From assembly GCA_023248635.1 (NCBI GenBank), contig JAHFED010000030.1, positions 1-64,000 on the forward strand: a stretch of DNA of 64,000 nt. The letters are read 5' to 3'. The notes below the pieces were generated by a model that ran no database searches, was not told the origin of the DNA, and worked only from the letters and a program-made list of their open reading frames with translations. Origin of the DNA: Myxococcales bacterium (GTDB lineage: Bacteria > Myxococcota > UBA727 > VGSZ01). A program made the translations under genes and the position numbers. Below are positions 13,497 to 19,154 of the stretch, in pieces. Position 1 is the first letter of the stretch. Each line of letters opens with the position of its first letter.

Positions 13497-15317
13497 ATGA
13501 GAGTCAAGAAACAGCACCCACCCCGTCCCACGCTCCAAGGAACCACGGCTTCGCCCCCGGTTGCGACCGACCTCGCAGCTGTGTCGACGCCGGCGAAGCC
13601 GATGTCGCTTCCTCCGGTGCACCGTCACGGTTCCTTGCCCTCTCACTCGACGGCCAATTCGTCGACGACACCCAACACCGAGCTCAGCGCGCGCACCTGG
13701 GTGAAGGAGCCCGGCAGCCCTTCGACGCGAGCGCTGCTTCTGTCGGCAACGTCGCCCACGCGCTTTGCGTCTTCGGTGCCCGAGACCAAGGCCATCGTCG
13801 CTAGGAGAGTCGAGCTGCGCGGCGCCTTTCATCCTGCAGCAGTGTCGGCGTCGACGTCGTCGCCGACCGCATTGGTGTTGCGACCCGCAGCCGATGCCGG
13901 CTTCGTCTTTGGCGGCCAGCGCTACATCGAGCTGCCCAATTCGACGGCGTTGACGACGACGGATCCGCGCAGCGGCCGCACCCGCGAGCTGGTGTTGACG
14001 CGCGGGGTCCGGCCCTACGAGAACGAGATCGATGCCGAGCGCGGGGTGCTCAATGGTCCGCGCGACTACGTCTCCGACGTGCTCCTGTTCGAACGACAGG
14101 GAGAAAAGCTCGTCTACGTCGACGTTGTCTTGCGCTCGGCGCCCGAGCACGGCTTTCTCTTTGAGGATCCGCGCATCTCGGCCTTCGTCGACGAAAGCGG
14201 TGCGCGCCGCATCTTGCTGTCTGGGACCGATTACTCGCCCCACGTCGCGGGCGCGACCAACAAAGACGTGATGAACCGCTACGTCGAGCTCACCCTCGAT
14301 GGCACGGGACTCCCGCAGCCCGTTGCCGTCGACGCCACGACGAAGCGGCCGAGCTTTCGAGATCTGTCGCCGCGCCCCCGCGCTTCAGAAAGCGGACACG
14401 CTTTCGTCGATGCCAAGAACGCCGTCGTCGCTGTCAACGAGGACGGGCATGTCGTTGTGCGCACCCGCTTTCGACCGTCGAAGGACGATCCCGCCTTCGC
14501 CGCCCATCCGCAGGTGAAGCCCTGGGGCTACGGCGAACAGGTCTTCGAGTTCGCGTCCTTCGCCGACCTGCAGCGCTACGACTGGGGACACGCGCTCGAC
14601 CACCTGGTTGCCGCCACCGCTGGCCAGCTCAACGCCAACGACCCGCGCCCCATGCCGCTCCACGCCGCCTGCACCGCCGTCGACGACACCTTCCACGAGC
14701 TCTACCCCAAGGAAGTGCTGGCACCGGGCAAGGGCAAGGGCTTTGGTCCGGGGACGCCGCCGGTGCGCGTGCGCCGCGCGGGTGACGAGCTGTTCCTTTC
14801 GGAGGGAAAGGGCGCGAGCGAACGCAGCCTGGGCCGCGTGCCCACAGGCTTGCTCGAGGGCCTTCCCATCGACGACGGCGGCGTCGTGCACCTGACCTTC
14901 GATCACGAGATTCGCTACTGCGTCGACCACCGTTTGGTCGACGGCAAGAACGTCGATGCCATCAAGCGCGTGTACTCGGCGTCGATCAAGCTGTGGGACC
15001 GCACGCTGACCCGTCTCGACAAGGTGTACGCCGACGTCGTCCAGCCCCTCGAGGACCACCAGCGCGGCGGCTCGGGCATCCTCGACCTTCACCACACCTA
15101 CCCCATGGGCCGCGTCATCGTCGAGGGCGCCGCTGGCCCCGTGGTGCGCGTCGTGTCAGGCGAAAGCGATGCGCACACCGCGAGCTGCGACTTCGACGTG
15201 TTGAAGCTGCTCGTCGAGATGGCCCGCGGCGGCGAGCGCGAACGCTCGGGGCAGGTGTACGCGCCCTCGTCGCCGCGCTTGCTCCTGGAACAACGGAGCC
15301 CGCGAGCGACGACCTAG
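13497..15317 (+). CDS. GH130/GH43-like beta-propeller protein
   Basis: Encodes 606 residues. The first 90 or so are Ser/Thr/Pro-rich and probably disordered. The rest contains GVRPYENEIDAERG, then FEDPRISAF followed by LLSGTDYS and, near the C-terminus, a GESDAHTASCDFD segment. 'EDPRI' with a following short strand and a late 'G.aDt.t' element is the pattern of five-bladed propellers of the GH130 glycoside phosphorylase/hydrolase type. A carbohydrate-active role is inferred, not certain. The stop codon shares a CTAG with the stop of the convergent kinase gene. An alternative start is the ATG at 13602. Confidence 0.5.
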   Translation: MRVKKQHPPRPTLQGTTASPPVATDLAAVSTPAKPMSLPPVHRHGSLPSHSTANSSTTPNTELSARTWVKEPGSPSTRALLLSATSPTRFASSVPETKAIVARRVELRGAFHPAAVSASTSSPTALVLRPAADAGFVFGGQRYIELPNSTALTTTDPRSGRTRELVLTRGVRPYENEIDAERGVLNGPRDYVSDVLLFERQGEKLVYVDVVLRSAPEHGFLFEDPRISAFVDESGARRILLSGTDYSPHVAGATNKDVMNRYVELTLDGTGLPQPVAVDATTKRPSFRDLSPRPRASESGHAFVDAKNAVVAVNEDGHVVVRTRFRPSKDDPAFAAHPQVKPWGYGEQVFEFASFADLQRYDWGHALDHLVAATAGQLNANDPRPMPLHAACTAVDDTFHELYPKEVLAPGKGKGFGPGTPPVRVRRAGDELFLSEGKGASERSLGRVPTGLLEGLPIDDGGVVHLTFDHEIRYCVDHRLVDGKNVDAIKRVYSASIKLWDRTLTRLDKVYADVVQPLEDHQRGGSGILDLHHTYPMGRVIVEGAAGPVVRVVSGESDAHTASCDFDVLKLLVEMARGGERERSGQVYAPSSPRLLLEQRSPRATT

Positions 15318-17072: not shown

Positions 17073-19154
17073 ATGGGACACGCCGGTCAGATGTTGGTGG
17101 CCCTCTTGGGGCTGGTCGTGGCCTGCAGTGTGGGCTGCGGTGAGGGGGCCCCTCCCGTCGTCGACGGCGTCGCTGACCTGCGCACATGGGACTTCGACAG
17201 CGACGGCCCCATCGATCTGGCCGGCACCTGGGAATTCGCCTTTGGACAGCTTCTGGTCGACGACGGGACGCCGCTGGCCCCTACGCCAGATCGCCTCGAC
17301 GTGCCCGGCAGTTGGCGCGGCGCGTCCACCAGCAAAGGTCCGGCGACGGCGGAAGGCTTTGGCACCCTGCGCATGCGCGTGCTGCTGCCCCCCGGACCCT
17401 TCGCGGTTTTTCTGACCCATGCAGACACCGCCTTCTCGCTCCATGCTCTGGGCAACGCCGACGGCGCCGTCGTCCGCGGGCTCATGTCGTCGGGCGTGGT
17501 CGGCCGCGATGAGGCCCACAGCGTCCCTGATGCGGTCCCAGCCCTTGCCGAGCTGCCGACGTCGACGGAGCTGACCCTGCTGCTGCAGATCAGCAACTTC
17601 CACTACATGCAGGGAGGCCCGGGCGGCATCTTGCGCCTCGGACGGCCTGAGCAGTTGCAGCGGCAGCGCAATGCGGCCCGTGAGCACGAGTTCTTCATCA
17701 TCGGCGCCCTGGTCGTCGTGGGCCTCTACCACCTGGCCTTGTTCTCGCTGCGCCGATCCGAACGGGCGCCGTTGTGGTTCGCGCTCTTTTGTTTCGCGAT
17801 CGCATTGCGCACGGTCGAACGGGGCTTTTTCTTGCCGGAGCTGCTGCCCGGTTGGCACTTGTGGCTGCCCTTGAAACGCGTTGAATTCGTCACACTTCAT
17901 TTAGCAGTTCCGCTGTTTTGTCTATATATTCATGGTGCGCTTCCCGGGTTGTTTCATACGAATTTCTTGCGCGGCATCACCGCGCCAAACCTCGTCTACG
18001 CGCTGCTCGGATTAACGACGCCGCCCACGATCTTCGGTTGGACGACGGTGCCCTATCAGGTGACCAGCCTCATCGGGATCGCTTGGCTTCTTTTCACCTT
18101 GATCAAGGCCAGCAAAAAAGCGAGTGCATGGGACGTGCGCTTTGTGCTCATCGGTATGTTGATGCTCGCCATCGGATCGGTTAATGACATACTCGTCAAT
18201 CACTATCTGGTGCGCGCACCTTTCATGCTGGGGGCCGCACTTGCGCTCTTCGTCTTGTGTCAAGCCATCGTGCTGGCGCTGGGTGCCGCCCGCGCCCGCC
18301 GCACCGCCGAGGAGCTGTCCATTCGCCTGCTGCAGCTCGACAAACTGAAAAATGAATTTCTCGCGAACACGTCGCACGAGCTGCGCACGCCGCTCAACGC
18401 CATCATCAACATTCCCCACGCCCTGCTCGCCGAGATCGAGGAGAGGCCGGTGCTGGTCTGTCAGGGGTGCGGTGCCCTGTACGAAGTCGAAGATGACGTC
18501 GACCCCCAGATGGCTTGCAGCGAATGCGGGCTTCAGAAGCTCGTCGTCGAACAGAGGCGTTTTCCCCCCGACGACGCCGACGCTCTCGCGCTGCACCTCC
18601 GCTCGATCGTCGGCTCAGGCCAACACCTCTTGGGACTGGTCAATGACATCCTCGACCACAGCAAGCTGGCCGCCGGCCGTTTCCAAATCACCAGGGTGCC
18701 GACCGCCATCGGCGACGTCGTCACCGCTGCCCTCGCCAACGTCGCTGCCGTCGCCCGCACCGCCGGAGTCGAGCTGAGCTCCAAGGTCACGCCGGATCTC
18801 AGGGTCGATGGCGATCACCAACGCCTGGTGCAGGTGCTGATCAACTTGATCGCCAATGCCGTGAAATTCTCCCCGCGGGGCGGCACCGTCGACGTCATCG
18901 CGGCCCTCGATGGAGCCTTCGTCGTGCTGCAAGTGATCGATCGCGGCGTCGGCATCGCCGCCGAGCACCATGAGCTGATCTTCGAGTCCTTCCGCCAGGT
19001 CGAAGGTGGCCACACGCGAAAGCACGGCGGCACGGGGCTCGGTCTGGCCATCGTGCGTCAACTCGTTGAGCTGCACGGCGGCACAGTGGGGGTGCAAAGC
19101 GCGCTCGGCGCCGGCGCGACCTTCGAGGTCCGCTTGCCCACTTTGGTGGCCTGA
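17073..19154 (+). CDS. 7TMR-DISM sensor histidine kinase with zinc ribbon in the DHp domain
   Basis: Encodes 693 residues; ATG 17073 is preceded by GAGG at good distance. A signal-like N-terminus (MGHAGQMLVALLGLVV) leads to an extracytoplasmic jelly-roll of the 7TMR-DISMED2 type (PIDLAGTWEF, then LDVPGSWRG), then about seven TM helices (roughly residues 205 to 415), then HisKA with H435 in SHELRTPLN. Directly after helix 1 is an inserted ribbon C463-x2-C466-x15-C482-x2-C485, then helix 2 (LLGLVNDILDHSKL) and HATPase_c (LIANAVKFSP, DRGVGI, GGTGLGLAI). No receiver is attached; the divergent kinase-receiver protein is the obvious partner candidate. The TM-coding part is AT-richer than its surroundings. 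Confidence 0.92.
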   Translation: MGHAGQMLVALLGLVVACSVGCGEGAPPVVDGVADLRTWDFDSDGPIDLAGTWEFAFGQLLVDDGTPLAPTPDRLDVPGSWRGASTSKGPATAEGFGTLRMRVLLPPGPFAVFLTHADTAFSLHALGNADGAVVRGLMSSGVVGRDEAHSVPDAVPALAELPTSTELTLLLQISNFHYMQGGPGGILRLGRPEQLQRQRNAAREHEFFIIGALVVVGLYHLALFSLRRSERAPLWFALFCFAIALRTVERGFFLPELLPGWHLWLPLKRVEFVTLHLAVPLFCLYIHGALPGLFHTNFLRGITAPNLVYALLGLTTPPTIFGWTTVPYQVTSLIGIAWLLFTLIKASKKASAWDVRFVLIGMLMLAIGSVNDILVNHYLVRAPFMLGAALALFVLCQAIVLALGAARARRTAEELSIRLLQLDKLKNEFLANTSHELRTPLNAIINIPHALLAEIEERPVLVCQGCGALYEVEDDVDPQMACSECGLQKLVVEQRRFPPDDADALALHLRSIVGSGQHLLGLVNDILDHSKLAAGRFQITRVPTAIGDVVTAALANVAAVARTAGVELSSKVTPDLRVDGDHQRLVQVLINLIANAVKFSPRGGTVDVIAALDGAFVVLQVIDRGVGIAAEHHELIFESFRQVEGGHTRKHGGTGLGLAIVRQLVELHGGTVGVQSALGAGATFEVRLPTLVA

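What the first reader, a model, noticed from the sequence alone, without database searches (positions are those of the whole stretch)
15314..19154. Divergent pair: zinc-ribbon histidine kinase and receiver-tagged Ser/Thr kinase
A 7TMR-DISM histidine kinase without an attached receiver is divergently encoded, 148 bp away, from a Ser/Thr kinase that carries a C-terminal CheY-like receiver with a phospho-acceptor Asp region and the conserved Lys. The simplest reading is that the histidine kinase phosphorylates the receiver and thereby switches a Hanks-type kinase, a direct His-Asp-to-Ser/Thr link. This is inference from context; both domain sets are visible.
Basis: partly seen in the sequence, partly recalled or inferred. 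Interest (0 to 1): 0.7.

Follow-up and report, generated by a model that had tools for sequence, protein, structure and literature searches.

The report
Zinc-ribbon histidine kinase with kinase-fused receiver
A bacterial membrane sensor kinase carrying a zinc-ribbon in its dimerisation hairpin sits back-to-back with a serine/threonine kinase that carries what looks like the sensor's own cognate receiver domain, so the cell probably wires a classical two-component signal straight into a eukaryote-type kinase.

Summary
A 7TMR-DISM histidine kinase (17073-19154 +) lies 148 bp from a divergent Hanks Ser/Thr kinase with a C-terminal receiver (15314-16924 -), and the catalytic residues of both are intact. 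The zinc ribbon (CxxC...CxxC) is inserted in the turn of the kinase's DHp hairpin.

Comparison turns the guessed pairing into a well-supported one. In 195 genomes of the phylum, histidine kinases with this insert sit next to a receiver of one clade, usually overlapping it by 4 nt. The window's receiver belongs to that clade (46-55% identity to most members). In the other genomes the receiver is free-standing or fused to PilZ or HDOD-SpoIIE. All 11 genomes found with the insert kinase also have the receiver clade. Within the receiver tree, 15 of 21 clade members are adjacent to such a kinase, against 0 of 14 in the sister group.

The window's genome has five insert kinases but one such receiver among about 86, the one fused to the Ser/Thr kinase. 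This suggests several sensors converging on one Hanks kinase. The Ser/Thr fusion itself was seen only here. Phosphotransfer, zinc binding and any effect on the kinase are untested. I call it a new variant of a known kind.

The parts
15314..16924 (-). Hanks-type Ser/Thr kinase with C-terminal receiver (536 aa)
   Evidence: ORF; Pkinase and Response_reg in Pfam
16097..16897 (-). Ser/Thr kinase catalytic domain, aa 10-276 (K42, HRD 147-149, DFG 167-169)
   Evidence: PF00069 104.7 bits; motifs
15740..16066 (-). Pro/Ser/Thr-rich linker between kinase and receiver, aa ~287-395
   Evidence: translation; no Pfam family there
15317..15739 (-). Receiver domain, aa 396-536, member of the receiver clade that pairs with zinc-ribbon histidine kinases; phospho-acceptor D448
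   Evidence: 46-55% identity to most stand-alone receivers of the clade; clade support 95/96; residues
16925..17072 (.). 148-bp divergent intergenic region
   Evidence: sequence
17073..19154 (+). 7TMR-DISM histidine kinase with zinc-ribbon insert in DHp (693 aa)
   Evidence: ORF, Pfam
17073..17690 (+). Putative lipoprotein signal (Cys22 invariant in the five paralogs) and extracytoplasmic part, aa 1-206
   Evidence: alignment A1; hydropathy
17691..18278 (+). 7TMR-DISM transmembrane sensor region, aa 207-402
   Evidence: PF07695 75.7 bits
18294..18443 (+). Signalling helix and DHp helix 1 with H-box; phospho-acceptor His435 at 18375-18377
   Evidence: PF00512 first stretch aa 426-447; helix in single-sequence model
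18444..18575 (+). Zinc-ribbon insert in the DHp turn, aa 458-501; Cys pairs at 18459-18470 and 18516-18527
   Evidence: four Cys invariant in 17 sequences and in all five paralogs; beta mini-domain in model, pLDDT 73-82
18576..18692 (+). DHp helix 2, aa ~502-540
   Evidence: HisKA alignment and model
18810..19142 (+). HATPase_c catalytic domain, aa 580-690, all boxes intact
   Evidence: PF02518 102 bits; motifs

Best explanation
The two genes are a cognate two-component pair whose response regulator has become a Ser/Thr kinase. The 7TMR-DISM histidine kinase senses an extracytoplasmic signal and autophosphorylates on His435. It passes the phosphoryl group to D448 of the receiver at the C-terminus of the Hanks kinase. 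The phosphorylated receiver then changes the Ser/Thr kinase, most simply through receiver dimerisation that brings the kinase domains together, or through relief of inhibition across the long flexible linker. The zinc ribbon at the tip of the DHp hairpin is a subfamily mark that travels with one receiver clade, and is most likely part of the docking or insulation surface. The same receiver is probably also served by some of the four paralogous zinc-ribbon kinases elsewhere in the genome, which have no receiver of their own kind. Shown here: the anatomy, the intact catalytic residues, and the co-inheritance and adjacency of insert kinase and receiver clade. Inferred: phosphotransfer, the effect on the Ser/Thr kinase, zinc binding, the docking role and the convergence.
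For: Domains and catalytic residues are intact. Histidine kinases with the same CxxC...CxxC insert are found in 11 of 195 genomes of the phylum at E<=1e-20, plus two more found by context. Each with an uninterrupted contig has a receiver of the window's receiver clade next to it: 8 loci with the 4-nt overlap of coupled genes, and one divergent across 164 bp, as here. The window's receiver is 55/54/53% identical to receivers of that clade (E 1e-39 to 1e-42) and falls in the clade with support 95/96; 15 of 21 clade rows are adjacent to an insert kinase, 0 of 14 in the sister clade, Fisher 1.8e-5. Genome co-occurrence is 11 both, 0 kinase only, 3 receiver only (2 of these 3 have a weaker insert kinase), 181 neither. 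HK and receiver distances correlate, r=0.92 over 14 pairs, permutation p<=0.0005. The closest architectural match, L091, has a 7TMR-DISM insert kinase overlapping a free receiver. Clade-specific residues E405, N408, W409, V411 and V516 lie in receiver helix 1 and the beta5-alpha5 loop, the surface that sets kinase specificity (PMC2991266). The own genome has five insert kinases and one receiver of the clade.
Against: No biochemical data exist. The STK-receiver fusion was found only in this genome, and the two same-genus genomes and one same-family genome lack both parts, so the divergent pair itself shows no conservation. None of the four paralogous insert kinases has a Ser/Thr kinase neighbour. 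Adjacency counts and the distance correlation are not corrected for shared ancestry. Six clade receivers have no adjacent insert kinase, at least one of them at a contig end. G033 has a clade receiver and no insert kinase found.
Confidence: 0.75

Rival explanations
1. The pair is cognate but signalling runs the other way as well or instead: the Ser/Thr kinase phosphorylates the histidine kinase or is inhibited by it, and the receiver acts as a docking tether or phosphate sink rather than a switch.
For: Ser/Thr kinases phosphorylating histidine kinases and regulators are documented (CroS by IreK, DegS by YbdM; reviewed in PMC12189002). The linker is long and Ser/Thr-rich.
Against: The receiver keeps every residue of a phosphorylatable receiver, and its clade lives as ordinary coupled partners of such kinases.
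Confidence: 0.12
2. The receiver is the target of several zinc-ribbon kinases, and the neighbouring one is not special: the STK is a hub read by the whole five-member family, with the degenerate members (N-box lost at C96; no ATPase domain at C109) acting as modulators or decoys. This extends the main explanation rather than excluding it.
For: Five insert kinases, one clade receiver. The four Cys are kept even in the member without an ATPase domain. The paralogs have no receiver next door.
Against: The assembly is 96.7% complete in 135 contigs, so a second receiver could be missing. Paralogs may have switched to other receivers.
Confidence: 0.45
3. The zinc ribbon is an input, a cytoplasmic zinc or redox sensor acting on the DHp bundle, not a docking element.
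For: Cys4 ribbons can respond to oxidation or zinc (general knowledge). The position at the helical turn could alter autophosphorylation geometry; loops there set cis or trans (title of a reference cited in PMC12189002, paper itself not held).
Against: The insert stays while the sensor changes completely (7TMR-DISM, beta-propeller, sCache-HAMP), yet the receiver clade stays with it.
Confidence: 0.25
4. Two unrelated signalling genes lie side by side by chance.
For: The genome has about 98 Hanks-kinase matches and 86 receivers, so neighbours of both kinds are common. The arrangement is not conserved in close kin.
Against: The receiver is the only one of its clade in the genome, and that clade is the partner clade of insert kinases elsewhere.
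Confidence: 0.07

Closest known systems
Two-component pair with an enzymatic response regulator, e.g. P. aeruginosa PA2824 to PA3346 (receiver + Ser/Thr phosphatase), as reviewed in PMC12189002
   Same: A histidine kinase phosphorylates a receiver that controls a protein acting on Ser/Thr phosphorylation
   Different: There the output is a phosphatase with an N-terminal receiver; here it is a Hanks kinase with a C-terminal receiver, and the histidine kinase carries a DHp zinc ribbon
HstK-type proteins of cyanobacteria (Ser/Thr kinase and histidine kinase in one chain; cited in PMC2176072)
   Same: Both kinase chemistries are linked
   Different: One chain with a histidine kinase; here separate proteins linked through a receiver
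Coupled zinc-ribbon HK + stand-alone receiver operons of other genomes of the phylum (L089, L091, L097, L103, L117-L119; found here)
   Same: Same DHp insert with invariant Cys, same receiver clade
   Different: The receiver is free-standing and the genes overlap (by 4 nt in most); in the window it is fused to an STK and divergent
Divergent zinc-ribbon HK / receiver-PilZ pair in G190 (L098; found here)
   Same: Divergent geometry (164 bp) and receiver fused to an output domain
   Different: The output is PilZ (c-di-GMP-type) instead of a Ser/Thr kinase
Receiver-STK fusion of the same genome (L160:3683-5221)
   Same: Receiver and Hanks kinase in one protein
   Different: Receiver is N-terminal and ordinary (102.6 bits to Pfam), not of this clade

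Membership tests
HisKA-type sensor histidine kinase | H-box His plus N, G1, F and G2 boxes | tested here: met
   HisKA and HATPase_c above cut-off; boxes located
HisKA-type sensor histidine kinase | Uninterrupted two-helix DHp hairpin | tested here: not met
   A 44-aa Cys4 insert (aa 458-501) splits the HisKA match in two stretches; the helices on either side are kept
7TMR-DISM receptor | PF07695 seven-helix region | tested here: met
   75.7 bits against a cut-off of 29
Hanks-type Ser/Thr kinase | Catalytic Lys, HRD, DFG | tested here: met
   PF00069 104.7 bits; K42, HRD 147-149, DFG 167-169
Response regulator receiver | Acidic pair, phospho-acceptor Asp, Thr, Lys | tested here: met
   E403/D404, D448, T492, K514; PF00072 38.2 bits
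Zinc ribbon | Two CxxC knuckles in a small beta fold | tested here: met
   Invariant Cys; three-strand model, insert pLDDT 73-82. Foldseek neighbours include RPB12-type ribbons but none significant; Pfam zinc-ribbon match only in L101, below cut-off
Zinc ribbon | Binds zinc | not testable with these tools
   needs metal analysis of protein
Zinc-ribbon HK / receiver-clade module (defined here) | Insert kinase and clade receiver encoded together | tested here: met
Zinc-ribbon HK / receiver-clade module (defined here) | Receiver fused to a Ser/Thr kinase in other genomes | tested here: not met
   Other fusions are PilZ, HDOD-SpoIIE and HATPase; no other STK fusion
Cognate two-component pair | Phosphotransfer HK to receiver | not testable with these tools
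   needs a biochemical assay

The most novel reading that the evidence does not exclude
A previously undescribed, portable class of two-component pair in which a zinc ribbon at the tip of the DHp hairpin and a matching receiver surface (N/W/V in helix 1) act as an exclusive recognition key. In this genome the class has been amplified to five sensors that all feed one Hanks-type kinase.
Probability: 0.35. Interest if true: 0.78.

Novelty: new variant of a known kind. Interest (0 to 1): 0.62.

Why it matters
Most reported crosstalk between the two great bacterial kinase systems runs from Ser/Thr kinases onto two-component proteins, or through phosphatases. Here a cognate receiver, recognisable by descent, is welded to a Hanks kinase, which makes a direct His-Asp to Ser/Thr route testable with two purified proteins. 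The insert is also useful on its own: a metal-site-sized domain placed beside the receiver-docking surface and co-inherited with one receiver clade is a natural experiment on how kinase-regulator specificity is set, and possibly a ready-made orthogonal pair for synthetic signalling.

Tried and rejected
Conservation of the divergent STK pair in close relatives: none has either part, so the test was moved to the receiver and the insert. Ser/Thr kinases next to the four paralogs: none. A recurring STK neighbour near other clade receivers (L091 two genes upstream, L094 downstream, L102 about 630 bp upstream): with the many Ser/Thr kinases expected per genome, three such neighbours could be chance, so not used as evidence. 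Phyla elsewhere: 0 of 297 and 0 of 398 genomes, but only 12-16 candidates per genome were scored, so absence is weak. Structure: the STK-receiver model without an alignment was useless (pLDDT 38). The alignment of homologues was not handed to the predictor because its stated rule does not list loci from the whole-genome tools. Foldseek with the small model gave no significant hit. Literature: no paper in the library joined 'zinc ribbon' with a histidine-kinase DHp insert; the one hit concerns an archaeal cysteine-rich sensor domain. Residue numbers printed are 2 too high; one search gives the right ones.
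Full report
WHAT IS THERE. The window encodes, on the minus strand at 15314-16924, a 536-residue protein with an N-terminal Hanks-type Ser/Thr kinase domain and a C-terminal receiver. On the plus strand at 17073-19154 it encodes a 693-residue histidine kinase with a 7TMR-DISM membrane sensor, a HisKA/DHp region and an ATPase domain. The start codons are 148 bp apart. All residues needed for catalysis are present: K42, HRD and DFG in the Ser/Thr kinase; E403/D404, D448, T492 and K514 in the receiver; His435 and the N, G1, F and G2 boxes in the histidine kinase. 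The kinase and receiver are joined by a Pro/Ser/Thr-rich linker of about 110 residues.

THE ZINC RIBBON SPLITS THE DHp HAIRPIN. The Pfam HisKA match is broken in two because about 44 residues with CQGC...CSEC (aa 458-501) sit between the H-box helix and the second DHp helix. A single-sequence AlphaFold2 model of this 136-residue piece gives helix, three short strands, helix, with confidence 73-82 in the insert and lower elsewhere. Foldseek neighbours include RPB12-type zinc ribbons but none is significant. In the HK853-RR468 complex the receiver's helix 1 packs on both DHp helices below the histidine (PMC2991266), so an insert at the turn lies near the receiver-docking surface (inference).

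A FAMILY IN THIS GENOME. Four other loci in the same genome encode histidine kinases 52-72% identical to this one with the same insert. Four Cys are invariant. One (C96) has lost the N-box Asn, and one (C109) ends before the ATPase domain. Their neighbours are unrelated: carboxypeptidase, alpha/beta hydrolase, DnaK, alpha-2-macroglobulin, adenylate cyclase. None is next to a Ser/Thr kinase.

THE PARTNER TEST. No close relative (two of the same genus, one of the same family, others of the order) has either part at high similarity. Across 195 genomes of the phylum a profile of the split DHp found 11 genomes with such kinases. Reading their surroundings showed a receiver gene next to them beginning LVLYVEDEPSNWEV; the window's receiver begins LVLYIEDEQQNWEV. 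An independent search with the window's receiver found the same loci, at 46-55% identity for most of them. I fetched 34 contexts. Every insert kinase outside the own genome whose contig continues has a receiver of this kind beside it: L088, L089, L091, L097, L098, L099, L100, L101, L103, L114, L117, L118 and L119. In eight the genes overlap by exactly 4 nt, and in L098 they are divergent across 164 bp, like the window.

STATISTICS. In a maximum-likelihood tree of receivers the window's receiver falls in a clade of 21 rows (support 95/96), of which 15 are adjacent to an insert kinase; of 14 rows outside it none is (Fisher 1.8e-5). At genome level, 11 genomes found by the kinase search all carry the receiver clade, 3 carry the receiver only (in two of these an insert kinase was then found by context), and 181 carry neither (Fisher 1e-15). 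Distances between insert kinases and between their receivers correlate (r 0.92 over 14 pairs, permutation p<=0.0005). These figures do not remove shared ancestry. The same broad groups do appear in both trees, and the module is patchy among families.

WHAT VARIES. Sensors vary: 7TMR-DISM (window, L091), beta-propeller with Y_Y_Y (L088), sCache with HAMP (L101), and others. The fate of the receiver varies: free-standing in most, PilZ in L098 and L102, HDOD plus SpoIIE phosphatase in L090, an ATPase domain in L115, a Hanks kinase in the window. What stays constant is the insert with its four Cys and the receiver clade. Residues that mark the clade against its sister (E405, N408, W409, V411; V516) lie in receiver helix 1 and the beta5-alpha5 loop, the surfaces shown to set kinase specificity. 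This is why I favour a docking or insulation role for the ribbon over a sensing role.

CONVERGENCE. The own genome has 86 receivers by Pfam, but the window's receiver finds only itself (292 bits) and then 22.6 bits, whereas clade members in other genomes score 85 bits or more. So five insert kinases, three with all boxes intact, appear to share one clade receiver, the one on the Hanks kinase. A missing receiver in the roughly 3% not assembled is possible.

MECHANISM, WITH STATUS. Extracytoplasmic signal to 7TMR-DISM (inferred from family); autophosphorylation on His435 (residues shown); transfer to D448 (strong comparative inference); receiver change by dimerisation or release of inhibition altering the Hanks kinase (inference from fusion only); substrates unknown.

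NOVELTY. Receiver-Ser/Thr kinase fusions are not unique: the same genome has another with an ordinary N-terminal receiver. A histidine kinase controlling a receiver-phosphatase is known (PMC12189002). I found no description of a zinc ribbon inside the DHp hairpin or of its receiver partner, but the library is partial. I rate it a new variant of a known kind.

Noticed in passing
window 1-13100: Phage-like block on the minus strand: terminase large subunit (5041-6345), replication initiation protein (9245-10783), DNA methyltransferase (8655-9248), HNH endonuclease (11205-11654); probably a prophage or its remnant ending shortly before the finding.
   Followed up: partly
L024:5209-6948 (G000:C109): Paralogous zinc-ribbon kinase that ends just after DHp with no ATPase domain, yet keeps all four Cys and the H-box His; could be a decoy, phosphotransfer protein or relic.
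   Followed up: partly
L022:4289-6337 (G000:C96): Paralogous zinc-ribbon kinase whose N-box reads NLIEHAV (Asn lost), next to DnaK; possible pseudokinase.
   Followed up: partly
L160:3683-5221 (G000:C42): A second receiver-Ser/Thr kinase fusion in the same genome, receiver N-terminal and unrelated to the clade.
   Followed up: partly
L090:4507-6702: Clade receiver fused to HDOD and a SpoIIE phosphatase, with two further receiver proteins upstream and no insert kinase nearby.
   Followed up: partly
L092-L096, L104-L107, L109-L112: A sister receiver clade (YVEDDaDTFKLA; most of these loci, L094 excepted) never next to an insert kinase, in L092 followed by an MCP-HAMP protein; an orphan receiver family of its own.
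   Followed up: partly
L101:5600-13100: Three receivers of the clade within about 7.5 kb of one insert kinase, one of them just upstream of a receiver-containing sigma-54 activator.
   Followed up: no
window 15740-16066: The STK linker holds DDPTTVFDAF, which resembles FHA-binding or autophosphorylation sites; not tested.
   Followed up: no
window 13497-15317 and 19316-20761: Flanking ORFs of 606 and 481 aa with no Pfam or NCBIfam match; the first overlaps the STK stop by 4 bp tail to tail.
   Followed up: no
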